Shown piece by piece: positions 34,913-50,991 of a DNA stretch of 64,000 nt. The notes beneath the pieces were generated by a model. It saw nothing but the letters and a program-made list of their open reading frames with translations. It did no database searches and had not been told where the DNA came from. Origin of the DNA: Rhodoferax sp. WC2427 (GTDB lineage: Bacteria; Pseudomonadota; Gammaproteobacteria; Burkholderiales; Burkholderiaceae_C); contig NZ_CP162006.1 of the NCBI RefSeq assembly GCF_040822085.1, forward strand, positions 2,666,001-2,730,000, given 5' to 3'. The position numbers and the translations under genes are program-made. How positions within the stretch are numbered: the stretch's first letter is position 1; each line of letters begins with the position of its first letter.

Positions 34913-34940
34913 CGCCAAAAAAAGGGGGGTAAAGTGGCAA
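34913..34940 (-). promoter_or_regulatory. Late regulatory motif, copy A (before protease-capsid)
   Basis: Minus-strand reading: TTGCC, three variable bases (ACT), then TTAC6T7GGCG. Identical at 25 of 28 positions to copies at 40244 and 50964. Here the gap to the ATG is about 50 bp. Lies just downstream of the inserted Arc/antirepressor block. Confidence 0.75.
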
Positions 34941-35024
34941 TTGATTGCGGGAATCAAGGCCAGGGTAAAGCGCGGGATGCTACGCATTCGGTAGCACCCC
35001 GCCGGGCCGGTGAGGCCTACTGCA

Positions 35025-35243
35025 TTACGCCTGAAAGCGGGTGTGCCGTGCCACCCGCAGGCCGTCCACCACGTTGGCCATCTGCACGCCTACACCCTCC
35101 ACCAGCCCGACAAACAGGCCTGCCGACAGCGGGTATTCCGGTGGGCAACCGTGCAGCAGCTCCAACAGGGCGCGGATGCTGGTGTAAGCGCCGTCGGCAT
35201 CCACGGCGGTGTCGGACAGGGTTTCTTGAAGTTCATCGCTCAT
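35025..35243 (-). CDS. Hypothetical phage protein, 72 aa
   Basis: Acidic small protein (DELQETLSDTAVDADGAYTSIRALLELLHGCPPEYPLSAGLFVGLVEGVGVQMANVVDGLR). Its ATG overlaps the antirepressor stop. Helical with a hydrophobic middle; similar short proteins accompany phage antirepressors. No known function. Confidence 0.55.
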   Translation of the reverse strand: MSDELQETLSDTAVDADGAYTSIRALLELLHGCPPEYPLSAGLFVGLVEGVGVQMANVVDGLRVARHTRFQA

Positions 35244-35863
35244 GGTGCACCGCCTTCCAGGGCAAGAATCTGCTGCCGCACACCTGGGGCCAAATCCAGC
35301 ATCGCAGATGCGCGCTGCCCCAGCAAAGCACTGACCATCACGTAGTCGGCATAGGCATCGGTGGCGACACCCAGGCTAGCGGTGTTGCCCAGCTCTTTGC
35401 GCAAATCACCGCGCCTCCGCATGAGCCGGTCGCTGTCGCTGGCCCCCAGTCGTTTCCCTCCATGCAGCGGTTCTTGCTGGGTCCAGTGCCGCCACAGCAC
35501 CTCGTCGCACTCGTCCTGGTACCGGATGACCTTGGGGCGCAGCGCAGCGGTCAGCTTGCCAGGGTTGAGGGAGTACAGCCAGCCGGGGAGCTTGCGGAGA
35601 GGTTGACAAATCATGGTGCGAGGCTTTCCGTCCTCTGCAACTGTGGTGATTTCCACCATAGTTGACCCGAATTTCTCAGCAAGTTTGACGTACTGGCTGC
35701 GCCAATCGAGGCCCATGGCGGTCACCAAGGGCTTCATGACCACGTAGGGCTGCGCATTATGCTCAACCAAAACCAGGGTGTCCTCGTGGAATAGCACGGG
35801 CATCAGCTGTACCGGCTCTGATTTCTCTATAGCCGATGCTGGGTGTTGGGTATTAGAATTCAT
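35240..35863 (-). CDS. Phage antirepressor, P22 Ant N-terminal domain
   Basis: 207 residues from ATG 35863; an in-frame start at 35959 is also possible. The conserved block VLFHEDTLVLVEHNAQPYVVMKPLVTAMGLDWRSQYVKLAEK and TMICQPLRKLPGWLYSLNPGKL is the P22_AR_N domain, followed by a helical C-terminus. In P22, Ant inactivates the main repressor and is held off by Arc. Here it lies just after a minus-strand Arc-like gene, the same arrangement. Confidence 0.85.
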   Translation of the reverse strand: MNSNTQHPASAIEKSEPVQLMPVLFHEDTLVLVEHNAQPYVVMKPLVTAMGLDWRSQYVKLAEKFGSTMVEITTVAEDGKPRTMICQPLRKLPGWLYSLNPGKLTAALRPKVIRYQDECDEVLWRHWTQQEPLHGGKRLGASDSDRLMRRRGDLRKELGNTASLGVATDAYADYVMVSALLGQRASAMLDLAPGVRQQILALEGGAP

Positions 35864-35948
35864 GGGCTTGGTTCTTTCATTGGTAATGGGGTTCTGGGCA
35901 CTCGATGCCCCGGCTGTTGACGCAGCCGGGGCATTTTCTTTTGTGGGC

Positions 35949-36122
35949 TCACTTCGCATCTTCAGCCCTCTTTTCGAGCTGTTGCCGCCTGGATTCCTCC
36001 AGCCGGGTAACGATTTCAGCAGTCAAGCTGCGGGAGTTATCTACCGCCTCATGCTTGAGCCACTTTTCCAAGTCAACGGGCATGCGCAGCGAATAGGGCT
36101 TTCGTTGTGGTGGTTTCTCCAT
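35949..36122 (-). CDS. Arc-like ribbon-helix-helix repressor, 57 aa
   Basis: 57 residues from ATG 36122. PPQRKPYSLRMPVDLEKWLK followed by HEAVDNSRSLTAEIVTRLEE is a textbook Arc fold: strand YSLRMP, helix A, then SRSLTAEIVTRLEE. It overlaps nothing and is just upstream of the antirepressor, so it is expected to repress it as in P22 immI. It is divergent from a second Arc-like gene at 36233. Confidence 0.9.
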   Translation of the reverse strand: MEKPPQRKPYSLRMPVDLEKWLKHEAVDNSRSLTAEIVTRLEESRRQQLEKRAEDAK

Positions 36123-36171
36123 TTGTTCCTTTCACACACTGTTGTTCGTGTGGATGAAGTATAGATTCCAC

Positions 36172-36189
36172 ATTTGATGGATGTCAAAT
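36172..36189. promoter_or_regulatory. Operator palindrome between divergent Arc genes
   Basis: ATTTGA and TCAAAT (36172-36189, spacer TGGATG) form a perfect 6-bp inverted repeat, beside repeated GATTC words (36162-36167 and 36191-36195). The AT-rich gap of 110 bp holds the two divergent start sites. Likely binding site for the Arc dimers. Confidence 0.6.
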
Positions 36190-36232
36190 AGATTCTTTGT
36201 CAAGATTCCAATTGGCATCCACAATTTCGGCC

Positions 36233-36613
36233 ATGACCGATCGACACCAATCTCCCTCGTATCCATTACGCATTTCCAGCGAACTCAAATACCAAGTAAC
36301 TAAAGCGGCTTTTGCGATGGGCCGCAGCTTTAACGCAGAGGTCACAGCCCGCCTTCAGAGCTCCTTTGCATCACCCATTCCAGATCTACCTGCAGAGGTG
36401 AAAGCAGCGGTGGAAGCTGAGGCAAAAAGTAGAAATTGCACAGAGAGTGAGGCGCTCACACGACTGGTGCTGGCTGGCCAATCGAAGGGCGGCACGCTGT
36501 TGCAGATCACCCTGACCCCACAGACCACCTACCAGCAGCTGAAAGACTTGCTCAAAGCAGGCGAAACCATCATTCCGCCCAACGCCGCGTTGGTGGTCGA
36601 AACCAAGCGCTAG
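36233..36613 (+). CDS. Arc-like RHH regulator with C-terminal domain
   Basis: 126 residues from ATG 36233. The N-terminal RHH reads SYPLRISSELKYQVTKAAFAMGRSFNAEVTARLQS, followed by an acidic/Ala-rich region and a C-terminal beta-alpha part (GGTLLQITLTPQTTYQQLKDLLKAGETIIPP). Divergent from the 57-residue Arc gene, comparable to arc/mnt of P22. Ends 3 bp from the convergent SRAP gene. Confidence 0.85.
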   Translation: MTDRHQSPSYPLRISSELKYQVTKAAFAMGRSFNAEVTARLQSSFASPIPDLPAEVKAAVEAEAKSRNCTESEALTRLVLAGQSKGGTLLQITLTPQTTYQQLKDLLKAGETIIPPNAALVVETKR

Positions 36614-37701: not shown

Positions 37702-38799
37702 TCAGGCTCTGCGCAAGAGCCTTTTATTCACTGCATACAGCGGGCTGCGAATCATGCCCTGCGATAGCTTTCCCTCGTCCCACAGCGTGGCCTTTTGCTG
37801 GCCCAGAATGCCCTCGCGCACATCGGGCGGCATGCGGCCCATGGCATCGGTCACGGTTTCCTTGCCCGCCGCGTCGGCAGTGGTCAGGTCCGACGCAAAC
37901 ACGATGTTCACAAAGCTGAGTGTGTTGGGGTGTGCGGGCCAGGGGCAGCGGTCGGCGCTGGGGTACACGCCCTGGCCCAGGCCGTACAGGTTCTGCGCGG
38001 CCAGCAGGTCGCAAATGTCGGGCTTGGGGTGCTGCGGGCTCAACAGGTACTTGAAGCCCACAAAGCCCGGCGTTTGCGCGGCGCCCTGCATGTAGGCGGT
38101 GCCGTGGGCGCGGTTGGCTTCGGTGCGGAACACGCGGGCGGCCTTCCACACTTCAGCCTGATCATTGCCGGCCAGCAAATCGGCCGCGCGGGCCACCTGC
38201 CCCACGGTGCCGCCCTGGAGGCGCGCCGACACATCGGCCGGTACCGGCTGGCCGCTGTACATGAACTGCGCCGCCGCGCGCTGCGCGTCCCAGCCCTGCA
38301 CCACCGCGCTGTTGATAGCCCGGCCTAGCACTTCTTTGGCCCCCTGGTCCAGCCGCCACACCCGGTCGCTCAGCTGCAGTCCGTCGGCGGCGCGGAAGTT
38401 CAGCACGAATTTCACGGCATCGGTGGCCACACGCATGGCCGCATCGCTGCCCAGCACCGCCTGTGCGCCCGCCTGGCCCGTAGCCGCCACCGCTGCCGGG
38501 GTGTACGGCTGTACGCCCAGCGCGGCCGCCTGCTCCAGGCCCTGGGCCATCAGGGTGTTGCGCTGGTGGCCCAGCGCGTCGATCACGTCGTTTACCTGGC
38601 GCAGCAGATCCTGCAGGCGCTCCAGCGGCACCAGGTCGCCATTGTTGGCCTTGGAGGCCACCAGCGCTTGTACATCCTGCGCAGCTTGCTCGTATATTTG
38701 TAGCAGCTCTGCGGCCTGCTGAGCGTCCAGATCCTGCATGGCATTGCGTGCCTGCTGGCTGGCACGATGGATGGCGGCACGGGTGACAGCGGACTTCAC
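37702..38799 (-). CDS. Phage head morphogenesis protein (Mu gp30/SPP1 gp7-like)
   Basis: 365 residues, helical N-terminal region (LQIYEQAAQDVQALVASKANNGDL), then the conserved C-terminal block: FRTEANRAHGTAYMQGAAQTPGFVGFKYLLSPQHPKPDICDLLA, NLYGLGQGVYP and RCPWPAHPNTLSFV. That block (D-I-C with a C-P-W-P-H-P) is the head morphogenesis family. Overlaps the portal stop by four bases. Follows the portal as in Mu-like phages. Confidence 0.88.
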   Translation of the reverse strand: MKSAVTRAAIHRASQQARNAMQDLDAQQAAELLQIYEQAAQDVQALVASKANNGDLVPLERLQDLLRQVNDVIDALGHQRNTLMAQGLEQAAALGVQPYTPAAVAATGQAGAQAVLGSDAAMRVATDAVKFVLNFRAADGLQLSDRVWRLDQGAKEVLGRAINSAVVQGWDAQRAAAQFMYSGQPVPADVSARLQGGTVGQVARAADLLAGNDQAEVWKAARVFRTEANRAHGTAYMQGAAQTPGFVGFKYLLSPQHPKPDICDLLAAQNLYGLGQGVYPSADRCPWPAHPNTLSFVNIVFASDLTTADAAGKETVTDAMGRMPPDVREGILGQQKATLWDEGKLSQGMIRSPLYAVNKRLLRRA

Positions 38800-40217
38800 C
38801 CGCGCCCTCGCCCGCCATTGCTACCCGGTTGCCCCACCGCCGTGCTGCTCTCGCCTTTGGGTGCGTTGCCGGGCGTGGTGCTGACCTTCAACGAACCCTG
38901 GGCCATGGGCAGGCCGTCCGGCCCCACTTTCAACGGGTTGGGGTACGGGTCGGTGCTGTTGGCCTGCTTGATCTTCATCGCCCGGATCTTCTGCGGATCC
39001 AAACCCATCTCGGTCTGGATGTACTCATCCGGCAGGCCCAGCGCCATCCATTTCAGCGCCAGGTCCGCCACCTGGTTGGATGTCTCGGTGCGGCGGGTGG
39101 CAAAGCGAAGGTAGAAATCGTCCGGACCGGGGTCTATGCCTTGCAGCAGCAGGTGGATGCGGAAGGCAAAGGCGTACACCCCGCCCTGCGCGTCCTGCAG
39201 GCCGTCCACGTAGTCGTAATACTGGCGCTTCATGTCCTCCAGCACATCGCGGGCCACGCCGTCGGTGTAGCCAAACAAGGCCTTGGGCGCGGGCGAACCG
39301 GCAAAAAAGGTGCTCAGCAGGTGGGCTACGTCGCCGATATCGCCCAGGGTGGCGTCTCCCTGGATGGCCTGCACGCCGCCCTTGCGGTTTAAAAAGAAGT
39401 CGGTGGTGATCTCGTTCTGTTCGCCCTGGGTCTGCTGGCGGTAGGCGGCCATGGTGGGTTCGTCGGCATTTTCCAGAATGTGGGCCAGGCGCAGCGGCGC
39501 GCGGGTGCGGCGGCGGATCACCAGGTCTTCCTCGGTCATGATCAGTTTGCGCCAGGTGCTGGCGCAGCCGTCCAGCATGGGGCGCCCCATGCTGCCCAGG
39601 TCGTCCCAGTTGTCGGGGTCCAAGCGGCCCAGCGCCAACTGCCAGGCGGCGAAGCTGGCCAGGGTCTGGCCGGTCATCACGTCGCGCTGCTCAAACGCTG
39701 CGGCCGGGTTCTTGAAGCGGCCGCCCATGTCGGTCATGGGCTGCAGGGTGTCGCTGGGCATGCGCACCGCGGCCACCACCTGGGCGGTGGTGCCCGACGT
39801 GTCCAGCACCAGCTGCAGCGGCAGGTTGCCCTCGATTACCAGCCCGCCCCGGGCATCGCTTTTGAGCTTCTCCCAATTGTTGAGCTGCAACCGCGCCTGG
39901 AAGCCATCCCACTCGCGCTTCAGCACCTCGCTGGCGGTCTGCATCACGAGCCCGCCCCGGATCACGTCGCTGGCGGTGCGGCCGTGCACCATCTTCACCC
40001 GGCCATCCTTGCGGTCCATCTCGCGCATGGTGGCCACGAGCGCGCGCCGGTCGTAGTCCACAAACATGGCGTTGCGCATGGCGCGCTGCATGGCCAGGTC
40101 GGAGGCAATGCGCTGGCCCTGCTCGCCTGGCAGGCTGCTGGAGGACGGGAACAGCGCCGACCATTTGGATGCCAGCGGGGCCAGGACATTGTTGGTTAGT
40201 GCGCGGAAGATGGCCAT
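38796..40217 (-). CDS. Portal protein, Mu gp29-like (DUF935)
   Basis: 473 residues from ATG 40217. LAMQRAMRNAMFVDYDRRALVATMREMDRKDGRVKMVHGR and later PEVMDRAAVLARAF-type segments (DEYIQTEMGLDPQKIRAM, GLPDEYIQTEMG) match DUF935 portal proteins, which form the dodecameric portal at the capsid vertex. The C-terminal part is proline/Gly-rich. Preceded by copy B of the 28-bp late motif; the preceding in-frame extension (MPDYPPFFG) is not used. Confidence 0.88.
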   Translation of the reverse strand: MAIFRALTNNVLAPLASKWSALFPSSSSLPGEQGQRIASDLAMQRAMRNAMFVDYDRRALVATMREMDRKDGRVKMVHGRTASDVIRGGLVMQTASEVLKREWDGFQARLQLNNWEKLKSDARGGLVIEGNLPLQLVLDTSGTTAQVVAAVRMPSDTLQPMTDMGGRFKNPAAAFEQRDVMTGQTLASFAAWQLALGRLDPDNWDDLGSMGRPMLDGCASTWRKLIMTEEDLVIRRRTRAPLRLAHILENADEPTMAAYRQQTQGEQNEITTDFFLNRKGGVQAIQGDATLGDIGDVAHLLSTFFAGSPAPKALFGYTDGVARDVLEDMKRQYYDYVDGLQDAQGGVYAFAFRIHLLLQGIDPGPDDFYLRFATRRTETSNQVADLALKWMALGLPDEYIQTEMGLDPQKIRAMKIKQANSTDPYPNPLKVGPDGLPMAQGSLKVSTTPGNAPKGESSTAVGQPGSNGGRGRG

Positions 40218-40243
40218 AGGCGGCCATCGTCGGACAGTTTTCG

Positions 40244-40271
40244 CGCCAAAAAAAGGGGGGTAATCCGGCAA
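40244..40271 (-). promoter_or_regulatory. Late regulatory motif, copy B (before portal)
   Basis: TTGCC, GGA, TTAC6T7GGCG on the minus strand, 27 bp before the portal ATG. The following leader also shares GGCCGCCTATGGCC around the start with copy C. Lies directly after the inserted integrase block. Confidence 0.8.
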
Positions 40272-40283: not shown

Positions 40284-41207
40284 TCAGGTAGTCAGAACCA
40301 ACCGCTTCCACTCACCCACGCTGAGCCCTCTATCATCGTTGTAGCGGTCGGTCATAGACTGGTGCTTGTGTCCCAGCAGCGTCTGGGTATCGATACCCTG
40401 CTTGCGATAAAGCCGCTCAGCCAGCGATCGGCATTCATGCAAGCTGGGGCGGACACCGCGGAGCCACGTACCTATTTTGTTGATGCACTCTTCAAAGCGA
40501 TAGCTGAGCATGTCGGGGCGCTCAAATGCTGCGCCGTTCTTTTTTCGCAAAAGCGTCGGACCTGCCTTTGCATAAAAGCGGCATAGTTCAATCACCTCGC
40601 CCAAAGTCAGGCCGACTGCATCAAGGCGCAACGACAGCGGCAGCGCTACCCGCGCGCCATGTGGCTTGCCCGCTTTTTTTTGCTGCTCGATGTGAAGGTA
40701 TCCATCGCTCACATCATCGAAGCGCATTTTGCAAAGGTCTGCCCGCCGCTGCCCAGTTGCAAGTGCCAGCAAAAGCATGGGCTCCAACCACTTGATGGAC
40801 CCCGCAGCGGCGAGCGTCCGCATCTGCTGCCACTGCTCTAACGTTAGGCGCTGGCGTTTGACCTTGGCCGCCGGGCGACGGACGTGCAACGCCGGGTTCA
40901 AATCCATCCAGCCATTCGCCACCGCTTCTGAAAACACATCACGCAACTCATCGAGCACACGCTGCGCAGTAGGCGCTCGATCTGGCAAAAAACTGCGGAT
41001 GGCCGTCGTCAGGTGATGGGGCCGGATGCTGCGCATCGTGTGGCTGCCCAGGCCCCGCCGAATATGGCGCACACAGATGGATTTGTTCTTGACGGTTTGC
41101 GGGTTGTACTCACGCTGTTTGATGATTTCTTGGTACACATCCAACCACTCAGAGAGGGAGCGCCACTGTGGAGACACCCGCCCCAAAATCCTCGACATAA
41201 GACCCAT
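40284..41207 (-). CDS. Tyrosine integrase, phage HP1/P2-like
   Basis: 307 residues from ATG 41207, just after GGAGGGG; 41198 and 41219 are alternatives. N-terminal arm/core-binding part (LSEWLDVYQEIIKQREYNPQTVKNKSICVRHIRRGLG), catalytic domain with ATGQRRADLCKM (first Arg), HECRSLAERLYRK (H-x-x-R), LLGHKHQSMTDRYND (Tyr). In sequence closest to integrases of small prophages. It lies between the capsid/portal genes, which is not where an integrase belongs, so it marks an inserted element or cargo. Divergent RHH gene and repeats lie upstream. Confidence 0.85.
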   Translation of the reverse strand: MGLMSRILGRVSPQWRSLSEWLDVYQEIIKQREYNPQTVKNKSICVRHIRRGLGSHTMRSIRPHHLTTAIRSFLPDRAPTAQRVLDELRDVFSEAVANGWMDLNPALHVRRPAAKVKRQRLTLEQWQQMRTLAAAGSIKWLEPMLLLALATGQRRADLCKMRFDDVSDGYLHIEQQKKAGKPHGARVALPLSLRLDAVGLTLGEVIELCRFYAKAGPTLLRKKNGAAFERPDMLSYRFEECINKIGTWLRGVRPSLHECRSLAERLYRKQGIDTQTLLGHKHQSMTDRYNDDRGLSVGEWKRLVLTT

Positions 41208-41221
41208 AAACCCCTCCATTT

Positions 41222-41294
41222 GTTGAGACTCAACAATTAGGATAATTTATGAGTCTCAAAAATAAACCAACCTGCCATTTATGAGTCTCAAAAA
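41222..41294. promoter_or_regulatory. Operator-like repeats between integrase and RHH gene
   Basis: A perfect palindrome GTTGAGACTCAAC (41222-41234) and a perfect direct repeat ATTTATGAGTCTCAAAAA at 41245-41262 and 41277-41294 (32 bp apart). The shared word GAGACTCA/TGAGTCTC is the same in both orientations. This is a set of three related sites covering the intergenic region, probably bound by the RHH protein. Confidence 0.75.
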
Positions 41295-41313
41295 CTGCGC
41301 ATAAAATCACGAA

Positions 41314-41505
41314 ATGACTACATCAAAACCCAAACCTGGCCGCCCTGCCACACCAGACGATCAAAGACTTATCTCCAAGTCCATGCGGTTCACTGCGGGC
41401 CAGTGGGCAAAGATTGATGAAGCAGGCAGGGCCTGGCTGCGTGACCTTGTCGACGCAGCTCCGATGCCAAAGAAAAAGCCACCCGAAGGTGGCTCTGAAG
41501 ACTGA
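41314..41505 (+). CDS. Small RHH regulator divergent from the integrase
   Basis: 63 residues from ATG 41314. SKPKPGRPATPDDQRLISKSMRFTAGQWAKIDEAGRAWLRDLVDAAP shows a ribbon-helix-helix with an AT-hook-like basic N-terminus (KPKPGRP). Likely represses the integrase or itself through the repeats upstream. Ends at a small hairpin (GCCACCCGAAGGTGGC, 41479-41494). Confidence 0.7.
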   Translation: MTTSKPKPGRPATPDDQRLISKSMRFTAGQWAKIDEAGRAWLRDLVDAAPMPKKKPPEGGSED

Positions 41506-41548
41506 CGGGTTCACCGGCAGGGGATGGGAATACTGTCAGTGGCCGAAC

Positions 41549-41570
41549 AAAAAAACTCGCCGAGGCGAGT
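41549..41570 (-). terminator. Terminator of the PEP-CTERM gene
   Basis: Minus strand: ACTCGCCTCGGCGAGT hairpin (7-bp stem) followed by T7. It ends the PEP-CTERM transcript and also separates it from the integrase block. Confidence 0.8.
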
Positions 41571-41591
41571 CAGATCTTGATGTTGTCGAAG

Positions 41592-42158
41592 TCAGACCAG
41601 CTTGAGCCTACGATTAGCCAAAAGTCCTGCAAATCCAAGACCGACGAGTGCTAGTGAACCAGGCTCCGGTACAGAATTGGAATTGCTTCCCGTGAGATTG
41701 ATAACTGAGTTGGTAAGCGCCACACCCCAACCGGAGTTGCTTGCATCGATATCAATTCTCAACTTTAGACCGGTCGCTATGTCATCAAAAAAGTTGCTTG
41801 TAAGGGTGAAGCTGGTATCAGAGAAAAGCTTATCACCTCCAGTAAGCATACCGAGAAGCACCCATGTTCCTCCGGCCGAATTTGAGTCATAGGCATAGAT
41901 GTTGTCAAATTCGCCTGGGTCCACATCATTTGCACCAATGGTTAACGCGGCGGAAGTGAATGCCCCACTATAGGCAGCCTGACTCCAGTTCCAATCTTGA
42001 TTGGAAAATCGGGCGTATGGAGCATTTGTTATTTGACTGGATACAGGGCCGAAATAGGTGGTCGCTGTAGGAACATAATTTACAGGCGTTGCCTGGGCTA
42101 CGCCAAAAAAAACGCCGCCAAAAAGAACGCCCAAAAGTACTTTGGAAGAAATTGTCAT
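41592..42158 (-). CDS. PEP-CTERM sorting-signal protein
   Basis: 188 residues from ATG 42158. Signal peptide SSKVLLGVLFGGVFFGVAQA, Ser/Thr/Asn-rich beta domain (SFTLTSNFFDDIATGLKLRIDIDAS), and a C-terminal tripartite tail: VPEP, then GSLALVGLGFAGLLA, then NRRLKLV. This is the PEP-CTERM signal, cleaved by an exosortase in EPS-forming bacteria. No exosortase is in the window, so sorting must rely on the host. Unusual as prophage cargo. Confidence 0.92.
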   Translation of the reverse strand: MTISSKVLLGVLFGGVFFGVAQATPVNYVPTATTYFGPVSSQITNAPYARFSNQDWNWSQAAYSGAFTSAALTIGANDVDPGEFDNIYAYDSNSAGGTWVLLGMLTGGDKLFSDTSFTLTSNFFDDIATGLKLRIDIDASNSGWGVALTNSVINLTGSNSNSVPEPGSLALVGLGFAGLLANRRLKLV

Positions 42159-42372
42159 GAGTGAAAAAAGGTAGGCTGCGGCGGATGCCTGGATAGATGA
42201 ACGCTCGAATTTTCCCCGCTCAGTCGAAAAATTGCCGTGACTTAGTTTGCAGATCTTACGAATAGTTACATTGATGTCGTCGAAATATCCCAACTAAAGG
42301 GATGGGGTTAGGCGCTTCGACGCCTGCGCTACAGTCACTTTGCTCCTACGCATCTTCTAGAAACTAATAAAT
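42159..42372. other. AT-rich divergent promoter gap, cargo cassette
   Basis: 214 bp between the divergent PEP-CTERM and acyltransferase genes. Lower in GC than the flanks. No clear ribosome-binding site or operator stands out; both genes' promoters must lie here. Confidence 0.4.
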
Positions 42373-43452: not shown

Positions 43453-43517
43453 AATTAAGGCTTGTATCGCAATCAAGATCATTGGAAACGAACGCACTTA
43501 TTCTCTCACTTATTCCT

Positions 43518-45605
43518 ATGCGTAAAGTCTTCAAGGTTTCAGTGATGGCATTCACTTTTCTAATATTCGGGACTACTCACGCTGCGGAATTTAAATTCAA
43601 AAGCGAATTTGTAAAAATAGTTCCCGAAAAAATTAAAGACAAAAGCCATACAAATTGCACATTCCCAACAGATCCATATGAAATCTCCAAATACGAATTA
43701 AGCAATACGGAATATGTTGAATTCTTGAACTCTGTCGCAAAGAAAGGCGACCCGTTCAATTTATACACGAAAATTCAATCGCAACATTTTTGGGGTGGAA
43801 TTATCGCAAAGAAAGTCGGCGAGGAAACCATATTCTACGTAAAGTACGGGTATGAAAAACTACCCGCAACATTCATATCTTGGTTTGATGCCATAAGATA
43901 CCTAAACTGGCTAAGTTATGGAAAACCAAATACAGGACGCAGTGAATTAGGAACAACGGAGGGAAATGCAACCCACGGGGCTTACAACACGGCCGACCTA
44001 GAAACAAATAAAGTACCTCCGCAGAGAAACAAAAATGCAACTTACTTTTTACCGACTTGCGGAGAATGGATATATGCGGGCTTCTACAACCCTATCAACA
44101 AGATCATAAGCCGGGACTCCGGCGGCGACACGCCGCCAATCGCTGGGCCTCCTAACGCCAACACAAGATCCGCAAACTACTACACAGATCAGTGGGCAAT
44201 CCCATATCCACACCTTGCCGCAGTTGACGCATATACGAGCAACTCAAGCGCACTTGGTACTTTAAACCAAGCTGGAAATGTAATGGAATGGGTAGAAACG
44301 GACGGCAATATGGCGCTTGGAGGTTCACTCTTCTTGCCTGGCGACACCATCACGAGCACTTATCGTGATCTCGAACTACCATCAAAAAAATTGAGTTCCT
44401 TTGGATTTCGGATAGCAAAAAAAACTCCAAGCAATGACTCAGCGACTTTGAGCGCAACAGCAGAGACCAGTGAACCATTCGTAAAATCAGTTTCAGCAGC
44501 GCAGACAACCAATAAAACGGTGCCAATTGAAAAATGGATAAGAATCAGTATCCCCGGTAATACTTCCGATTTCCAAACAGGCAGAGGCTGTGTGGCAAAT
44601 GAGTATGAAATAGCCGCATTCAAAATCACTAATCAAGAATATTCAGACTTTCTGAACTCAGTTGCAGCTAGCAGAGATACTTATTTTCTATATCTTGACG
44701 ACATGTCAACAGGTATTGCCGGAGGCATAGAACGAAAAAAAACTTTGGAAACTTATAGATATTCTTCAAAAAATGGCTATGAAAATAGACCAGTCGCATA
44801 TCTCTCTTGGTTCATGATTGCACGGTATGCCAACTGGATGCATTTTGGCAAACCTGTTGGAGATCAAGTGCTTGGGGTCACCGAAGGGAATTCTTCAACT
44901 GGCGCCTATGACACTACCGCACTAAACGCTTATAAAAATAATAAAAGTATTAAGCATTTACTTACACGTAATCCAGATGCAAAGTACTTTATCCCCAACG
45001 ATGATGAATGGTACAAAGCCGCCTATTACGATCCTGAAAAATCCGGGCTATCAAAATATTGGATTTATCCTGAAAGAGTTGATGCCATACCCGAAAATTC
45101 AATGGAATCTAAAAATGGTGCGAATTTCCAAAATGAAACTATGGGGGAAGGCGCTCCTTATTACGTGAGCGAGTCTGGCGTTTTCAAGGGTTCAGGATAT
45201 TTTAAGGTTTCTGACATGGGCGGTAATCTGTGGGAATGGACCGAAACGTGGCGTAATTTTGGCGGCGAAGATTGCTGGCGCTGCGACACACCAAAAAAAG
45301 GACTTCGCGGCGGTTCCTTCAACTACATCGAAATAGGTTTGGACAAAAAAAATATTGACCCTGGTATTCCTGATAACCATTACTTTACCTACGGCGGTCG
45401 ACTCGCGCGGCGAGTTGAGTCTTCCGCCACTAGTTGGTGCATTCCGGCAGATGTCCGCTATCGCGCCGCGAATACTGCGGGGGCAGCATTCGCTCATAAA
45501 AAGGAGGGCGCTGCAGGCCTTGGAATAATAGGGGCCTGTGGTGTTCTCCTCCTATTCTGGAGACGACGGCGATCGCAAGAGCAACGAGCAAAACCTAAAC
45601 TTTAG
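43518..45605 (+). CDS. Two-domain SUMF1-like secreted protein with C-terminal anchor
   Basis: 695 residues from ATG 43518, preceded by a good hydrophobic signal peptide (RKVFKVSVMAFTFLIFGTTHAAE). Two tandem formylglycine-generating-enzyme-like (SUMF1) domains, about 30-310 and 340-640; both carry Y-E-I/N-E-Y-E-I, L-S/SNTEYVEFLNSVA and A-x-Y-x-S-W-F/D-A-x-R-Y-x-N-W repeats. The FGE catalytic Cys pair after RGGS is absent (LRGGSFNYIEIG), so no sulfatase activation is expected. The C-terminus AAGLGIIGACGVLLLFWRRRR resembles a sorting/anchor tail. GC is far below the neighbours. Confidence 0.85.
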   Translation: MRKVFKVSVMAFTFLIFGTTHAAEFKFKSEFVKIVPEKIKDKSHTNCTFPTDPYEISKYELSNTEYVEFLNSVAKKGDPFNLYTKIQSQHFWGGIIAKKVGEETIFYVKYGYEKLPATFISWFDAIRYLNWLSYGKPNTGRSELGTTEGNATHGAYNTADLETNKVPPQRNKNATYFLPTCGEWIYAGFYNPINKIISRDSGGDTPPIAGPPNANTRSANYYTDQWAIPYPHLAAVDAYTSNSSALGTLNQAGNVMEWVETDGNMALGGSLFLPGDTITSTYRDLELPSKKLSSFGFRIAKKTPSNDSATLSATAETSEPFVKSVSAAQTTNKTVPIEKWIRISIPGNTSDFQTGRGCVANEYEIAAFKITNQEYSDFLNSVAASRDTYFLYLDDMSTGIAGGIERKKTLETYRYSSKNGYENRPVAYLSWFMIARYANWMHFGKPVGDQVLGVTEGNSSTGAYDTTALNAYKNNKSIKHLLTRNPDAKYFIPNDDEWYKAAYYDPEKSGLSKYWIYPERVDAIPENSMESKNGANFQNETMGEGAPYYVSESGVFKGSGYFKVSDMGGNLWEWTETWRNFGGEDCWRCDTPKKGLRGGSFNYIEIGLDKKNIDPGIPDNHYFTYGGRLARRVESSATSWCIPADVRYRAANTAGAAFAHKKEGAAGLGIIGACGVLLLFWRRRRSQEQRAKPKL

Positions 45606-45626
45606 CTACGCTGCTCCTGCGGAAGA

Positions 45627-47267
45627 TTAAAGCATCACTATCTGACCATTGACGATAGTGCCGCTGTTCTGTGTGTTGACTTGTGCAGGTAGCAAAGTGC
45701 CCGACGCGGTACTAGCATCCCATACTTCTGCTAGTCCAGTGGTCACATCGGCAGCGGCGGAACCTAGTGCCGCGATAGAAAAACGGGTTGCGGCTTCTGA
45801 CAAGTTCAATTGCCGGTTGTAAACCCTGGCACCAATAAATGCCATTCGCAACGGGTCGGCCCAGCCACTGCCGTTTTGCCACGCACCGATACCGGTACGG
45901 TGACCTGAAACTGATGCAATATTTGTCGCCAGCGGCTTCACGCGCTGCTTTACAAGCACCCCATTCACAATTAGTTTCCACCCCCCCGCGCCATCGTGGG
46001 TAGTGATAACGTGCTGCGCCGCACCGTACTTCCCGAGAATCCCCGTGCGCCAAGCGCAGGTATCTAGGGGTTTACCTATGCCAATTTGCGGCAACGGGAC
46101 AACCATGTACTGCCCACCTGGCCAAAAGAGCTCCGTAGTGGTCTCATCTGTTGCGACCAGCAGCGACGCCCAAGAATATCCATTGGCGGTGTCTATTGGG
46201 CCAAGTCCTCGACCGATTAACTGCCCAATCTTGTTGGACAGACCCGGCACGAAAGGGATGCCAAACCACTCGACTGTCATGGCGCCAGAAATATTCAACG
46301 TAGCGTCTGATACGCCGCAATCAATGACACTGGCAATATCTCGGCCAGGCAGATACACGGCCTTTTTACCCGACGTGATAATAGTTGGCGCTTCAGCAGG
46401 AGTTCCATCCACGCCACCAAAGACAATGGCCTTAAATGGAACTCCGGATACGCCACCAAAGCCTGTGCTGAATGAAATATTCCCAGAATTTAATACTGCA
46501 TCGTTTGCCACTGCTGCTGTCGCACCCATGGGCAGCGTTGTGCCCACCACTGCAATCCGGGCTTGATTTGTCTGCGTAGCGTCATCGCGGTAGATAAACG
46601 CGAACTTCGGGTTTGGCATTGCGATGGTGACAGTTCCCGAAGATCCGGTCCCGGTCCATGCTACTACTTCGCAGCTTGTAGACGCACTAGAGACAAAAAC
46701 ACCATCAATGCCTTCGCCAATACCGTTCGCAGAGTCGTACTGATTGACGTTGTTGACGCTCGCGGCAAGCGTGACTAGCCCCGAGGTTACTCCCGTAACA
46801 GGCTCCCCAGCCAGGGTTGCCCCATCCAGGCCACGCCCCGCCCCACCGTTAAGCGGCGAAACGCGCAAAATGCCTGACAACGCATTATCGCGCTTGATAA
46901 ACATGGCTTTCGGGGTAAATCCTTTTTGCAGTGCGATCGGTAAAGCGATAGCTCCACGACCAAGCCAAGATTGCGTTTCTAAGTCGTCAGTAGTGTCTTC
47001 ACCTAATGCGCCCCATATAAAGTTAACGCCACTCGCCGCAACTTTTGCGTCGGTTCCGAGGCGAATCGTATTTCCGACGATGCGAATCAGGTTATTGCCG
47101 CTTTCCAAATTAGACATTCCAACAGAGCGCCCGCACCACTGATTTGGCGTGTGGAACATTCCGTGAAGTGCCTGGTCACCTTTGATAAATACGACCTTGG
47201 GGGCGAATGCCAAAGTTATGGTGCGGCGCGCACCGTTACCGGTAAAAGTTCCAGAAGTTACAAGCAT
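45627..47267 (-). CDS. Tail fibre-like protein with LamG-like C-terminal domain
   Basis: 546 residues from ATG 47267, which overlaps the preceding stop. The N-terminal half has repeats of the form GTFTGNGARRTITLAFAPKVVFIKGD and TVTIAMPNPKFAFIYRD, a pattern seen in phage fibre proteins. The C-terminal half (TVEWFGIPFVPGL, WKLIVNGVLVKQRV, AFIGARVYNRQLNLSEAATRF) is a concanavalin/LamG-like jelly roll that may bind sugars. Unusual place, between terminase and portal genes. Confidence 0.7.
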   Translation of the reverse strand: MLVTSGTFTGNGARRTITLAFAPKVVFIKGDQALHGMFHTPNQWCGRSVGMSNLESGNNLIRIVGNTIRLGTDAKVAASGVNFIWGALGEDTTDDLETQSWLGRGAIALPIALQKGFTPKAMFIKRDNALSGILRVSPLNGGAGRGLDGATLAGEPVTGVTSGLVTLAASVNNVNQYDSANGIGEGIDGVFVSSASTSCEVVAWTGTGSSGTVTIAMPNPKFAFIYRDDATQTNQARIAVVGTTLPMGATAAVANDAVLNSGNISFSTGFGGVSGVPFKAIVFGGVDGTPAEAPTIITSGKKAVYLPGRDIASVIDCGVSDATLNISGAMTVEWFGIPFVPGLSNKIGQLIGRGLGPIDTANGYSWASLLVATDETTTELFWPGGQYMVVPLPQIGIGKPLDTCAWRTGILGKYGAAQHVITTHDGAGGWKLIVNGVLVKQRVKPLATNIASVSGHRTGIGAWQNGSGWADPLRMAFIGARVYNRQLNLSEAATRFSIAALGSAAADVTTGLAEVWDASTASGTLLPAQVNTQNSGTIVNGQIVML

Positions 47268-47269
47268 GC

Positions 47270-47686
47270 TCAGGCCCCTATCACAAAGTCGAATGTGGCT
47301 GTCCCACTGAATGCGGCCCAAATACCGTCCTGGCAATACGTCGGATTCGTCGCAAGCGTTGCAGACTGGCCGCTAGATAGCGCGCCGGTAAACAGCACGG
47401 CACCTGATGCTGCATATGGATTGTCATAAACAGTCAAAACGATAGAGGTGCCTGCCGTGCAACTGATGCCTACCAAGGTTCCGTAGGAGCCTTTCACGCG
47501 ACCTGTTGCTGTAATCGAGACTGTTCCCGCATTTGCTGGCAATGAGGGCAGATTGGAAATAACTGCTTGATAAACCCCCAGCACTTTGACCCAGATACCA
47601 ACAGCCGCAGAGTAAATGCTGGATTTCTTGACGCTTACGCCCACAATTGGCGAATATGTGCCAGCCTTCTTCGCATAAATCGTCAT
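47270..47686 (-). CDS. Beta-rich phage protein, fibre/decoration-like
   Basis: 138 residues: MTIYAKKAGTYSPIVGVSVKKSSIYSAAVGIWVKVLGVYQAV with a regular Y-x(5)-V spacing, then GTVSITATGRVKGSYGTLVG and a beta sandwich ending FDFVIGA. It shares composition with the following fibre-like gene. No family name; probably a structural adornment. Confidence 0.6.
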   Translation of the reverse strand: MTIYAKKAGTYSPIVGVSVKKSSIYSAAVGIWVKVLGVYQAVISNLPSLPANAGTVSITATGRVKGSYGTLVGISCTAGTSIVLTVYDNPYAASGAVLFTGALSSGQSATLATNPTYCQDGIWAAFSGTATFDFVIGA

Positions 47687-47689
47687 GAT

Positions 47690-47947
47690 TTATACCGTCT
47701 GGATGTAGATCGTGCCATCAGGACGACCGTCGGCATTATTGGGAGCTATCGCCGAAACGATAATCCCACCCCCATCCACCAGGGATCCGTCTGGCTTCTT
47801 GATCCCAACGATGGTCTTCCCGTCCGCCCCGCCATAAACCCACAACGGCGGTGGATTTCCCATCTCGTCCACGTGTTCCGCTTCAAAAGAGCCGGGCTGT
47901 GGTTTGGTAGGGTCAGGCTGATAGATCCGTGTGTGTTTCAGTGCCAT
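47690..47947 (-). CDS. Hypothetical phage protein, 85 aa
   Basis: HTRIYQPDPTKPQPGSFEAEHVDEMGNPPPLWVYGGADGKTIVGIKKPDGSLVDGG: small beta domain with a proline-rich N-terminus. Overlaps nothing, lies between terminase and fibre genes. Unknown. Confidence 0.6.
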   Translation of the reverse strand: MALKHTRIYQPDPTKPQPGSFEAEHVDEMGNPPPLWVYGGADGKTIVGIKKPDGSLVDGGGIIVSAIAPNNADGRPDGTIYIQTV

Positions 47948-47966: not shown

Positions 47967-49568
47967 TCAATATCCCAACAGCACAGGCGCTTCACCCAGC
48001 AGGCTTTCGCGCGTGGTCTTGCGCTGCTGGATCACCACCGGCGCGTCGGCCAGGCCGCGCGTCAGCAGGGCGTACACGCCCGCGCACACGGCATCAAACA
48101 AGTCGTCGCCCACCTTTTGGTCCACCATCTGGAAGCTGCTGTAGCTGGCCAGGGTAGGCAGCGCTTTCATGTTGCCCAGCTGGCGCATGAAGGTCAGCCA
48201 GGCGGGGTCTTCGCGGTCGTCGGTGGTGTCTACGTAGGGAAAGGCGGCGCGGTTGTTGTGGAAGGCCTCGCGCACGGCGCTGGCCATCACGTGTTTGGTC
48301 ATGCCCTCGAAGCGCAGGGGGGCAAACGCCCAGCCGCCCCAGGCGCTGGCATTGCTTTGCCCCTCGGCCACGGTTTCGCGGTTGATCTCGGTCAGGCCGC
48401 GGCGGAACAGGTCGTCGTTCACCGCGGTCATCATGCCCACGCCGTAGGCATCGCCGATGGCGTAATCCGGGCGAAAGTAGTCCCAAATGGCCACGATGTC
48501 CTGGCGCAGCGTGGCATCGCTGGTTCCGGGCGGCCACAGCTTCACATAGGGGAAGGTCAGCCAGTTGCCCATCACTTCCACGATCACCAGCGCGCTTTTG
48601 GAGGCCTCGGGGGTTTCGCCATGGCCGGTGTGGTCGTAGCCCAGGCCGATCAGGCCTCTGCGTTTGTAGCGTTGGCCTGGCAGGGGTTCGGCACGCTGTA
48701 GGCCTGCTTCCAGGCCCAGGGCGCAGGCCCGGCGGATATGTTCTTCCCAGATCCAGTTGCGGGCCTTGATGTTTTTGCACAAAAACTGGCGGATCCACTC
48801 TTCAGGGCTTTGCTGGGCCTGCATGGACTTGGCCCAGGCGGCATCCACCATGCCCATCTCCACCCCCAGGTGGATGTTGACGGCGGGCAGCACGTGGTAC
48901 TCGCCGGTGTTGATCAGCCGCTGCAGCACGTCCGCGCCCTTGTACACCCCGGTGATACGGATCGACGGCTTGAACTTGCCGGTGTTGGCCGCCACTCCCG
49001 GCCTCCGCGCCGCTCCCAGCATGGGCAAAAACCGGCTCATCAGCCGGTCTTGGGGCATGTCGTCAATTTCTTCCAGGCTGCCAATGGTCAGCGAGTCGCC
49101 ATCGATCTGACTCATGATCCCGTAGATGGTGCACATGCTCAGGTTGACGAACTGGAAGCCGGTGTCCTTGAGCTGGCTGCGCCCGTTCACGTAGTTGATG
49201 AACGCCCGCAGCATCTCGCTGCGCTTGATCGCGTCCGTCATGTAGTTCAGGTTGTTCTGGCTCTGCTGCATGCGCGGTGCCACGATGCCGCACTGCTGGT
49301 GCGAGTCGGTGGCCAGCATCTCCAGGTTGTAGAGCTCTTTATTGAACGTCTTGCCGGTGCGCCGTGAGCTGAAGTCCACGGTGTTGTCGTGGAGGTCCAT
49401 TTCCTGCATCTTCAGGCATTGCATCGGGTCTAGCTCGACGTTGTGCACGTGCTTGTGCCACAGGGCGTGCGGCCGCAGGCCGGTCACCGCATCCGGCACA
49501 GCAAAACGCATGATCTCGCGCTCGGCCACGATGGAGCTTTTACGGCGGTCGGCTGCGGTGTTGCGCAT
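47967..49568 (-). CDS. Terminase large subunit (Mu gp28-like)
   Basis: 533 residues. Walker A-like FSSRRTGKTFN at residues 66-76, followed by a P-loop-type strand; Walker B-like IGSLEEIDD near residue 164; C-terminal nuclease-like GYDHTGHGE with Asp in the second motif. The domain plan is that of the gp28-like packaging ATPase/nuclease. Adjacent to the small subunit through two tiny genes. ATG at 49568 chosen; an internal ATG at residue 20 is an alternative. Confidence 0.88.
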   Translation of the reverse strand: MRNTAADRRKSSIVAEREIMRFAVPDAVTGLRPHALWHKHVHNVELDPMQCLKMQEMDLHDNTVDFSSRRTGKTFNKELYNLEMLATDSHQQCGIVAPRMQQSQNNLNYMTDAIKRSEMLRAFINYVNGRSQLKDTGFQFVNLSMCTIYGIMSQIDGDSLTIGSLEEIDDMPQDRLMSRFLPMLGAARRPGVAANTGKFKPSIRITGVYKGADVLQRLINTGEYHVLPAVNIHLGVEMGMVDAAWAKSMQAQQSPEEWIRQFLCKNIKARNWIWEEHIRRACALGLEAGLQRAEPLPGQRYKRRGLIGLGYDHTGHGETPEASKSALVIVEVMGNWLTFPYVKLWPPGTSDATLRQDIVAIWDYFRPDYAIGDAYGVGMMTAVNDDLFRRGLTEINRETVAEGQSNASAWGGWAFAPLRFEGMTKHVMASAVREAFHNNRAAFPYVDTTDDREDPAWLTFMRQLGNMKALPTLASYSSFQMVDQKVGDDLFDAVCAGVYALLTRGLADAPVVIQQRKTTRESLLGEAPVLLGY

Positions 49569-49585
49569 GTCAGTACGTCGCTGGA

Positions 49586-49828
49586 CTATTTACCTTCGGG
49601 GCGCTTATCCAAGCCCTTTTCGGCCAATACCGCGGCCAGGTCGTCCACATGGATACAGTCAACCATGCAGGCATAGTCATTCGGCTGTTGGATTGCCGCG
49701 ATGTTGCCGTTGCAATAGTCATTTCCAGGCGTCGCGCTGTGAAGCACGCCGAAAGAAACAACCTTCCCTCCGTCCAGTTTCACGATCTTGTCGCCGTTCT
49801 TTGCCTCGCGGCCATTTCGGTAATGCAT
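49586..49828 (-). CDS. Conserved small phage protein, 80 aa
   Basis: HYRNGREAKNGDKIVKLDGGKVVSFGVLHSATPGNDYCNGNIAAIQ: a KOW-like start (NGREAKNGD) and a conserved Cys/Asn core. Common between terminase subunits in betaproteobacterial prophages; function unknown. Confidence 0.65.
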   Translation of the reverse strand: MHYRNGREAKNGDKIVKLDGGKVVSFGVLHSATPGNDYCNGNIAAIQQPNDYACMVDCIHVDDLAAVLAEKGLDKRPEGK

Positions 49829-49831
49829 TTT

Positions 49832-49990
49832 TCAGTCCTTTGGTTGGGGAATTTGGTCACTCGGTGCCGCCGTGACCTTGTGGCGGTGGGGGCACTCGAT
49901 GTGTGAGCACTCCCATAGATGGTTTTCACCAGCGGGTAGCTGTGGCCTGGGTTTGTATTGGCAGACCTGGCATGGGTTGGGCTTCTTCAC
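49832..49990 (-). CDS. Tiny zinc-finger-like phage protein, 52 aa
   Basis: Starts GTG 49990, overlapping the small terminase stop. KKPNPCQVCQYKPRPQLPAG then ECSHIECPHRHKV: four Cys and several His spaced as in a small zinc finger (CxxC and CxxxxC/H). Too short to notice on length alone; the overlap and motif support it. Unknown function. Confidence 0.6.
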   Translation of the reverse strand: MKKPNPCQVCQYKPRPQLPAGENHLWECSHIECPHRHKVTAAPSDQIPQPKD

Positions 49991-50937
49991 GTTTTGCCCT
50001 CCCGCGCCTCGTGTGCCACCAGCACAGGGTCTTCCTGGGTCGTTTTGTGTGCCCGGGCCAGCATTTCGCGGGCAGTGCCCATGGCCAGCTCCATGCGCTT
50101 GCCGAAGCCCTGCAGGGTTTCCTGGGTCTCGGCATCCAGTTTCAACACCCCGCCACCCTTCTCATCCTCGGGGTCGGCGGTGCGCGCCGTCATGCCCAGG
50201 TCGTTCATGCTCAGGCCCAGGCGGTTCACAAAATCGGTAATCGACTTCAAGGCCGGGTGCGCGCTGAGCTCGTACACATTGCGGCGTTCACCGAATTCAT
50301 CCAGATAGGACAACGTGACGCAATTTCCCTCCCGGTCTAGTTCGACCTTGGGCACCTTCAGCGTTACGCCGTCGGCCAGCACGCCCTGCATCAGCATCTG
50401 CAGCATGGCCGTCAGCCCCGCTTGCAAGTCGGCGTGCACGCCGGCCAGCACGCGCGGGTTGCGCGACTCGAAGGCGGCGTGGTGCAGCATGAAAATCTCG
50501 GTCTGTTTGACGCATGCCGCCTGGCCTTCGCACCATCCACGGTTTACCTCGCACTGCGCGCAAAAGCTGTAACCGTCCGGCTTGGCCGGAAAGTAGGTGG
50601 CCGTCTTGGCCGCCATGCCGTGCTTCATGGCGTTGAACCGGGTGCGCCGCTGCGCTTCGCTGTTGGGGTGACCCGCCAGGTTCTGGCCCACCTTGGCCAG
50701 GCCTTCGGCCGTGCGCGGCCCGGTAGCCGCCTGGTGCGCCCGCATTAGGTTGCGCGCCCAGGCCGCCTGCGGCTGGTGCTCGCGCTGGCAGCGCGGGCAG
50801 GTAGCAAAGTACCGGTGCGGGTGGTGCTCGTCGTCCGGCGCGTCCTCGATCAGGTCCGGCTGCGCCTCCCAGGCGTGCCGACACCCGCCGCAGCGAAAGT
50901 TCACCGTATCGAGTGGAGCCGTCCAGTCCTGTGCCAT
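49987..50937 (-). CDS. Terminase small subunit / DNA-binding packaging protein
   Basis: 316 residues from ATG 50937. An N-terminal zinc ribbon (RCGGCRHAW, then TCPRCQREH) and a central RTAEGLAKVGQNLAGHPNSEAQRRTRFNAMKHGMAAKTATYF, a segment with helix-turn-helix character, suggest DNA recognition for packaging. Position directly before the large subunit (with two tiny genes between) supports the name, not a firm family match. Preceded by copy C of the 28-bp late motif and first in the late operon. Confidence 0.7.
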   Translation of the reverse strand: MAQDWTAPLDTVNFRCGGCRHAWEAQPDLIEDAPDDEHHPHRYFATCPRCQREHQPQAAWARNLMRAHQAATGPRTAEGLAKVGQNLAGHPNSEAQRRTRFNAMKHGMAAKTATYFPAKPDGYSFCAQCEVNRGWCEGQAACVKQTEIFMLHHAAFESRNPRVLAGVHADLQAGLTAMLQMLMQGVLADGVTLKVPKVELDREGNCVTLSYLDEFGERRNVYELSAHPALKSITDFVNRLGLSMNDLGMTARTADPEDEKGGGVLKLDAETQETLQGFGKRMELAMGTAREMLARAHKTTQEDPVLVAHEAREGKT

Positions 50938-50963
50938 AGGCGGCCATGGTCGGCCAGACGGCA

Positions 50964-50991
50964 CGCCAAAAAAAGGGGGGTAATTTGGCAA
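50964..50991 (-). promoter_or_regulatory. Late regulatory motif, copy C (before small terminase)
   Basis: TTGCC, AAA, TTAC6T7GGCG on the minus strand, 27 bp before the small terminase ATG. The leader to the ATG also shares GGCCGCCTATGGC with copy B. It heads the whole late region. Confidence 0.8.

What the first reader, a model, noticed from the sequence alone, without database searches (positions are those of the whole stretch)
34913..50991. A 28-bp motif at the head of three late-gene blocks
On the minus strand TTGCC-N3-TTAC6T7GGCG occurs at 34913-34940, 40244-40271 and 50964-50991, with 25 of 28 positions identical. The three copies stand just before the protease-capsid, portal and small terminase genes. 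Two of these positions are exactly where non-structural blocks (Arc/antirepressor/SRAP, and integrase/cargo) break the late operon. So each copy would restart late transcription after an interruption. Copies B and C also share the leader GGCCGCCTATGGC around the start. It is not a sigma-70 promoter; it may be a phage-specific activator site or an mRNA element.
Basis: partly seen in the sequence, partly recalled or inferred. Interest (0 to 1): 0.72.

Follow-up and report, generated by a model that had tools for sequence, protein, structure and literature searches.

The report
Phage late promoters with private activator boxes
The repeated 28-base motif is most likely part of a promoter that switches on the particle-building genes of a little-studied phage group, and each phage seems to keep its own matched spelling of it, which points to a phage-encoded activator that still has to be proven.

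Summary
Relatives carry an element of the same design before the TerS-like and the capsid-protease genes; 8 of 14 phage records have further copies, six of which precede tail or connector genes. Each copy is a ~27-bp box, 15 nt, then a -10-like GAnnnT, which emerges at a fixed distance when only the box is aligned. In the 46 of 56 loci where both copies were located, the box is much more alike within than between genomes (0.73 v 0.505, p=0.001); spacer and -10 are not (p=0.14, 0.055). In 35 of 42 TerS-like copies the start codon lies 5-8 nt past the -10, and an SD-like tetramer occurs in 0 of 42: leaderless mRNA is predicted. Best reading: activator-dependent late promoters, host sigma on the -10, a phage factor on the box. 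C and A are the standard pair; only B (portal) is extra, apparently a duplicate of C after the cargo block. Candidate activator: the HTH gene at 5782-6324; co-divergence tests do not settle it.

The parts
50962..50989 (-).
   Evidence: PWM 39.2 bits, best hit of the window
50946..50951 (-). -10-like GACCAT of copy C; start codon ATG after 8 nt (50937), predicted leaderless
50990..51024 (-). Intrinsic-terminator-like hairpin and T run just upstream of copy C (the T run overlaps the first two bases of the 28-mer)
   Evidence: fold of 81 nt, -28.1 kcal/mol
40242..40269 (-).
   Evidence: 31.2 bits
40226..40231 (-). -10-like GACGAT of copy B; portal ATG after 8 nt (40217)
34911..34938 (-).
   Evidence: 31.0 bits
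34895..34900 (-). -10-like GAAACT of copy A
34872..34888 (-). Leader hairpin CATCCG-GTCGT-CGGATG starting at the predicted +1 of the capsid transcript; AGAGG and ATG (34862) follow
   Evidence: (p=0.04)
49987..50937 (-). TerS-like Cys-rich protein, first late gene
   Evidence: no family hit
47967..49568 (-). Large terminase
   Evidence: phrog_2, 3.7e-06
38796..40217 (-). Portal
32262..34862 (-). Capsid-protease (Mu-like prophage I protein domain)
40284..47947 (.). Cargo block with genes on both strands between TerL and portal (tyrosine integrase, PEP-CTERM protein, acyltransferase, FGE-sulfatase-domain protein, unassigned ORFs)
5782..6324 (-). Candidate late activator X (C-terminal HTH; ORF is open to 6441, start uncertain)
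   Evidence: yong1 homologue (31% identity) annotated 'middle operon regulator'
4208..5785 (-). Large serine recombinase; in many relatives it lies between X and the TerS-like gene

Best explanation
Each copy is the upstream half of an activator-dependent late promoter. Shown by sequence: a ~27-bp box (consensus GCCAnTTnCCCCCCTTTTTTTGnCTTG, about -49 to -23) sits where a -35 hexamer would be, followed by 15 nt and a -10-like GAnnnT; the box changes from phage to phage but is kept alike among the copies of one phage, while the -10 is common to the family. Inferred: host RNA polymerase with its main sigma factor reads the -10, and a phage-encoded DNA-binding protein, most likely the HTH protein X (5782-6324), binds the box and recruits or isomerises polymerase, as Mor and C do at Mu promoters. 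At the TerS-like gene transcription is predicted to start at or next to the ATG (leaderless). In the window C and A are the standard pair; B is a third copy, derived from C by duplication, which lets portal be transcribed downstream of a cargo block that contains opposing genes. The confidence given is for the promoter reading; that X is the factor I put near one half.
For: Exact triple copy, absent elsewhere in the genome. Same-genome TerS-like and capsid upstream regions share a 16-mer with mean 14.1/16 (17 of 56 perfect) v 12.0 for other-genome pairings (16 of 3080 perfect) (35, recounted in 112). A leave-one-out PWM finds both copies in 46 of 56 loci (48 and 49 of 56 singly; shuffled upstreams 6 and 7 of 56); box identity within genome 0.731 v permuted 0.505 (max of 1000 0.555, p=0.001), spacer 0.299 v 0.275 (p=0.14), -10 0.482 v 0.443 (p=0.055). 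Box-only alignment of 85 copies reveals A 0.72 at -11 and T 0.74 at -7 after a near-flat spacer. 35 of 42 S copies have the start codon 5-8 nt after the -10 (register allowed to shift by 1), SD-like tetramer in 0 of 42. In 14 records 39 block hits, 38 on the late strand; of the 12 not used to define the block, 10 were followed up and 6 precede tail/connector genes by PHROG (43, 81, 109). X in 27 of 30 records, 56-174 nt upstream of the TerS-like gene in 7 loci. B/C leader identity 14 of 15.
Against: No transcript data. In 10 of 56 loci one or both copies were not located, among them yong1. The training set of the PWM was chosen for a shared block of at least 13 of 16 (42 of 56 loci). The co-divergence tests do not single out X: whole X has partial r 0.052 (p=0.29) over 24 genomes; its HTH half 0.282 (p=0.007), but in a fair 50-column scan the best X window ranks 19th of 187; near-identical promoters go with X HTH halves 34% different (L115/L116). 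X is missing from 3 of 30 records, of which G010 and G017 do carry the box (25, 43, 91; records may be fragments). No Pfam Mor hit in 38 X sequences; fold search unspecific. In 7 of 42 S copies the start lies 29-32 nt downstream. In some relatives the outer capsid-leader palindrome overlaps the -10 (by eye), awkward for an RNA hairpin.
Confidence: 0.8

Rival explanations
1. The box is the 3' arm and T tract of an intrinsic terminator that closes the preceding transcription unit, so its repetition at block heads is a terminator, not a promoter.
For: In some relatives (L032, L033, L034, L026) the C run pairs with an upstream G run to give a terminator-like hairpin (by eye); a terminator-like hairpin lies just upstream of copy C.
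Against: Copies A and B have no terminator hairpin ending at their T run; in several phages the T run is replaced (L056 GTGAAACGG, L076 GTTGTATTG, L103 GAACATGG) while the element is kept; a terminator does not explain the fixed distance to a -10-like hexamer nor identity between copies.
Confidence: 0.06
2. The box is a binding or crossover site for one of the phage's tyrosine recombinases; copies flank exchangeable modules and stay identical because recombination needs identity.
For: 24-28 bp with partial outer dyad symmetry (two outer pairs complementary 0.45 v 0.28 control); tyrosine integrases are conserved in the family; over 38 genomes integrase divergence tracked the box as well as the X HTH did (partial 0.307 v 0.308); module order differs in Rctr41k.
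Against: 38 of 39 hits are in direct orientation around essential genes; fixed spacing to the -10 and, at the TerS-like gene, to the start codon; over 24 genomes with a five-protein control the integrase does not track the box (partial r -0.114).
Confidence: 0.05
3. The box is an mRNA element (translational operator or antitermination site) in a long late transcript.
For: Some capsid leaders carry a hairpin after the box (9 of 42 C copies at p<=0.05).
Against: S copies rarely have one (4 of 42); the distance from box to start codon differs between S and C copies but the distance to the -10 does not.
Confidence: 0.06
4. The promoter reading is right but the factor is not X: CP76/CII, an unrecognised small protein, or an unusual use of a host sigma factor reads the box. 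(Not exclusive of the promoter reading above.)
For: CP76 is in 29 of 30 records, more than X (27 of 30); the co-divergence tests do not single out X.
Against: CP76 shows even less tracking of the box (partial r 0.028; best window 0.059); a host sigma factor would not explain phage-private boxes; X lies at the edge of the late region and has a HTH.
Confidence: 0.4

Closest known systems
Mu late promoters (lys, I, P, mom) with activator C, and middle promoter Pm with Mor
   Same: Several promoters per phage, one activator, dyad-type site upstream of and overlapping -35, non-consensus promoter elements, -10 present (PMC4287176 and PMC4461284, passages only)
   Different: Here the box is centred near -38 rather than -43.5, its sequence is C6T7-like and unrelated by eye; the TerS-like promoter is predicted leaderless; X is not recognised by the Pfam Mor model
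Microcystis phage vB_MaeS-yong1 (MT855965)
   Same: Only named phage in the collection that matched the TerS-like gene and X; homologues of portal, capsid-protease and CP76 too; X annotated 'middle operon regulator'; both upstream regions share CTTCCCGT...CCTGC (by eye)
   Different: Its spelling is so different that the family matrix does not find it (-6.3 and -4.1 bits); no promoter feature is listed in the stretches shown
P2 late promoters with Ogr / P4 Delta
   Same: Phage-encoded activator turning on several late operons (recalled; only a search listing was seen)
   Different: Ogr is a zinc-finger protein and its site lies further upstream (recalled); no such similarity was tested
T4 middle promoters with MotA
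   Same: Activator box replaces the -35 while a -10 is kept (recalled)
   Different: Box sequence and factor differ; T4 also uses AsiA (recalled); not tested

Membership tests
Canonical sigma-70 promoter | -10 hexamer with A at -11 and T at -7 | tested here: met
   A 0.72 and T 0.74 at fixed offset over 85 copies; window copies GACCAT, GACGAT, GAAACT; position -12 is mostly G, not T
Canonical sigma-70 promoter | -35 TTGACA at ~17 nt from the -10 | tested here: not met
   The T run of the box occupies that place; a TTG[AC]C in some relatives is only 7 nt from the -10
Mu C/Mor-type activator-dependent promoters | dyad element upstream of and overlapping -35 | tested here: inconclusive
   Two outer pairs covary weakly (0.45 v 0.28) about an axis near -38; inner part is asymmetric; Mu Pm axis is -43.5 (PMC4287176, passage)
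Mu C/Mor-type activator-dependent promoters | same site at several late promoters of one phage | tested here: met
   2 or more copies in 13 of 14 records, all but one hit on the late strand; identity within genome
Mu C/Mor-type activator-dependent promoters | activator needed for transcription | not testable with these tools
   needs transcription assays
Mor/C protein family (PF08765) for X | match to the Pfam model above its cut-off | tested here: not met
   0 of 38 X sequences match PF08765 at E<=1; no match in the own genome
Mor/C protein family (PF08765) for X | profile similarity over the whole domain | tested here: inconclusive
   hhalign of X v 24 Mor sequences, one pairwise comparison: E 0.00063, probability 28%, collinear over 89 columns; no control alignments were run
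Mor/C protein family (PF08765) for X | Mor fold | tested here: inconclusive
Intrinsic terminator | G+C hairpin directly before the T run | tested here: not met
   Folds of the stretches before A and B show none; C has a separate hairpin further upstream
P2 Ogr-type promoters | Ogr binding site and zinc-finger activator | not tested
   only a search listing was seen

The most novel reading that the evidence does not exclude
A widespread, undescribed late-transcription system of phages of beta- and gammaproteobacteria in which an activator and its two to four promoter boxes diverge together, so that the family holds dozens of mutually orthogonal activator-promoter pairs; the boxes stand in for the -35, the first late mRNA is leaderless, and a phage that takes up cargo copies the promoter to rescue the genes downstream.
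Probability: 0.45. Interest if true: 0.75.

Novelty: new variant of a known kind. Interest (0 to 1): 0.6.

Why it matters
It turns a curious repeat into a readable late regulon for a phage group with one named relative in the collection searched. It predicts transcription start sites almost to the base, a leaderless mRNA for the first late gene, and a natural series of diverging activator-promoter pairs, useful for studying how a regulator and several sites change specificity together. It also suggests how a prophage keeps its structural genes running after taking up cargo.

Tried and rejected
Exact-motif scans of IMG/VR: the full 28-mer pattern gave 0 hits; the 18-mer core gave 3 contigs. L004 reads as an AKKRGVS stretch of a HTH-like frame on the other strand (by eye) and was taken as chance; L005 and L006 were not examined further.

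Reading frame: B and C read LPxYPPFFG in frame upstream of the ATG; A runs into a stop, so a leader-peptide reading was dropped.

Capsid-leader hairpin as a family-wide feature: only 9 of 42 C copies reach p<=0.05, so it is kept only for the window and close relatives. The planned covariation count was not run.

Search for the trans factor by co-divergence: the first result (14 genomes) favoured the tyrosine integrase (r 0.604), but the G016 row had taken the wrong protein; over 38 genomes X HTH and integrase tied (partial 0.308 and 0.307, X N-terminal half 0.155); over 24 genomes with a five-protein control the integrase fell to -0.114 and whole X to 0.052, the top family being the structural protein 31190-31819 (0.219); X HTH 0.282, X N-terminal half -0.008; in a scan of 187 windows the best X window (0.194) was 19th, primase windows leading. 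Rows dropped: 66 loci to 56 for redundancy, 14 of 56 loci with a shared block under 13 of 16; (L055 and L096 no promoter above 0, L102 duplicate of L122); (G016 below score, G025 and G033 without upstream sequence). G010 was left out, and G017 was fetched but left out. One search kept the best 80 of 114 loci.

Mor family: Pfam 0 of 38; the first hhalign used wrongly oriented loci and is replaced. Foldseek and VIA gave only generic HTH matches; Mor did not appear in the lists.

Other weaker copies in the window: the next-best PWM hit is 18.0 bits at 44531 inside the cargo, taken as noise. att repeats around tRNA-Asn: no shared 12-mer between 3901-4350 and 50951-53000. Extra copies: 4 of the 10 followed up gave no identified gene; for G032 the script cut the wrong piece.

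Literature: searches (open-licence papers only; where many papers matched, only the top rows were listed) showed no title or abstract start describing this promoter family. Read: passages of PMC4461284, PMC4287176 and PMC12860723 (111: a PF08765 Mor of Burkholderia phages, no late promoters); no paper was read whole.
Full report
WHAT WAS CHECKED. No other copy with up to 3 mismatches exists in the 4.78-Mb genome or in 7 other genomes of the genus, and the pattern has no exact match in IMG/VR. If the sequence alone is followed the trail ends; it reopens when the genes behind the copies are followed instead.

RELATIVES. Searches with the TerS-like, portal and capsid-protease proteins gave relatives in IMG/VR (best 80 of 114 kept) and 45 loci in genomes of beta- and gammaproteobacteria. 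Among 50,697 annotated phage records only Microcystis phage yong1 matched the TerS-like gene. Upstream of the TerS-like gene most of the relatives shown have a C run, a T run and G some 30-45 nt before the ATG (not L039 and L040; L019 and L024 have a G run in place of the C run; L031 has no upstream sequence). The same phage shows the same spelling again before the capsid-protease gene: L030 has CCCTTTTTCTG at both places, L041 CCCTGTTTTTG, L040/L044 (one contig) CACCCCTGCA. The portal gene of relatives has no copy (11 loci shown, by eye).

WITHIN-GENOME IDENTITY. Of 66 loci with both genes, 56 remain after removal of near-duplicates. The best shared 16-mer between the TerS-like and the capsid upstream regions averages 14.1 matches in the same genome (17 of 56 perfect) and 12.0 between genomes (16 of 3080 perfect). 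A position matrix, with each locus left out in turn, finds both copies independently in 46 of 56 loci (48 and 49 of 56 singly; 6 and 7 of 56 in shuffled sequence). Column by column, the box (columns 0-28) is identical in 0.731 of within-genome comparisons against 0.505 after permutation of genomes (maximum of 1000 permutations 0.555, p=0.001). The spacer (0.299 v 0.275, p=0.14) and the -10 (0.482 v 0.443, p=0.055) show no clear excess. CCCT and one G are common to nearly all; the rest of the box is phage-private. This is what is expected if something encoded by each phage reads the box while something common to the hosts reads the -10. Limits: the matrix was trained on 42 of the 56 loci, chosen for a shared block of at least 13 of 16; the loci are related, not independent; 10 of 56 fail, including yong1 and L066, whose two copies nevertheless share blocks with each other.

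THE -10 AND THE START. Aligning 85 copies (42 loci plus copy B) on the box alone exposes, at a fixed distance downstream, G-A-A-n-(A/C)-T with A 0.72 at -11 and T 0.74 at -7; spacer columns are near background. In the window the hexamers are GACCAT, GACGAT and GAAACT. Between the -7 T and the start codon of the TerS-like gene there are 5-8 nt in 35 of 42 loci (mode 7) and 29-32 nt in 7, the -10 register being allowed to shift by one. An SD-like tetramer (GGAG, GAGG, AGGA, AAGG at -16 to -4) is found in 0 of 42; by a looser criterion 26 of 42 capsid copies have one followed by a start codon, so the two counts are not like for like. The first late mRNA is therefore predicted to be leaderless in most of these phages. 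At the capsid promoter of the window a hairpin starts at the predicted +1 and is followed by AGAGG and the ATG; similar hairpins occur in L012, L013, L030 and L053, but only 9 of 42 capsid copies reach p<=0.05.

MORE COPIES. In 14 phage records, examined nearly whole and in pieces, the genome's own block, allowing 3 mismatches (4 for blocks of 20-22), occurs 39 times, 38 on the late strand. 27 of these are the S and C copies used to define the blocks (G010, whose contig starts inside the TerS-like gene, has one). Of the other 12, one is on the wrong strand (G027) and one lies inside the XerD-like gene of G030; 10, from 8 of the 14 records, were followed: 2 precede tape-measure genes, 2 tail-completion/neck genes, 1 a tail chaperone gene and 1 a minor tail gene by PHROG; 4 were not resolved.

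THE WINDOW. In relatives portal follows TerL closely (gaps of 29-140 nt in 4 of 5 loci); L013 has 3.1 kb between them and no copy. In the window the interval carries genes on the opposite strand (42373-45605), which would hinder read-through. Duplication of the TerS-like promoter to the head of portal is the simplest account; it is inference. No direct repeat flanking the whole cargo block stood out.

WHO READS THE BOX. Families present in nearly all relatives and able to bind DNA include CP76/CII (29 of 30 records), tyrosine recombinases and X (5782-6324; 27 of 30 records; absent from G010, G017 and G036, of which the first two carry the box). In the window and in yong1 X lies between a tyrosine integrase and the serine recombinase; in 7 loci it ends 56-174 nt before the TerS-like gene (L078 and L145 look alike), in others about 1.7-3.9 kb before it. 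Its model has a helical N-terminal part and a C-terminal HTH. Similarity to Mor is weak: no Pfam hit in 38 sequences, profile-profile E 0.00063 with probability 28%, unspecific fold matches. Co-divergence tests do not settle it: the HTH half of X tracks the box (0.282, p=0.007) and the N-terminal half does not (-0.008), but windows of other proteins do as well or better. I put the chance that X is the factor near one half.

COMPARISON. It works like the Mu late promoters with C, or Pm with Mor: several promoters, one activator site overlapping -35, a -10, poor -35 (PMC4461284 and PMC4287176, passages). It is not shown to be a member: the site position and sequence differ and the activator is unproven. 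Nine literature searches showed no title or abstract start that describes this family (open-licence papers, top rows only).

Noticed in passing
window 49987-50937 (-): The gene called small terminase has no Pfam, PHROG or NCBIfam match and carries conserved Cys (C16, C19, C47, C50, C126, C129, C136, C142 invariant in 17 sequences); yong1 annotates it as 'putative glutamine amidotransferase'. It may be a zinc-binding small terminase or something else.
   Followed up: partly
window 40284-47947: Cargo inside the late operon: tyrosine integrase, PEP-CTERM protein, and on the opposite strand an acyltransferase and an FGE-sulfatase-domain protein with a weak kinase PHROG match.
   Followed up: partly
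L013, between TerL and portal: A relative has a 3.1-kb interval at the same place, without a portal promoter copy.
   Followed up: partly
window 12173-12490 (-): 105-aa protein matching phrog_2044, labelled 'RNA polymerase beta subunit' (E 8.2e-09); role unknown.
   Followed up: no
window 4208-7699 and 15876-16667: Serine recombinase, tyrosine integrase and a second XerD-like recombinase occur in most of 15 genomes, more than integration seems to need; two tRNA-Asn genes (3980-4055, 4174-4249) lie beside the serine recombinase but no matching repeat was found at the far end.
   Followed up: partly
window 40271 and 50991 (-): Copies B and C read LPxYPPFFG in the frame of open reading frames that run into the start region; A does not continue. 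Taken as coincidence.
   Followed up: partly
L055, L070, G028, G037: X sits in longer open frames (345-377 aa) there, possibly fused to an N-terminal domain.
   Followed up: no
L114, L124, L029, L030, L031 capsid leaders: Outer palindromic arms before the capsid gene overlap the -10 and differ between phages in a matched way (GATTA/TAATC, GATCC/GGATC); could be an operator or a longer RNA hairpin. By eye only.
   Followed up: no
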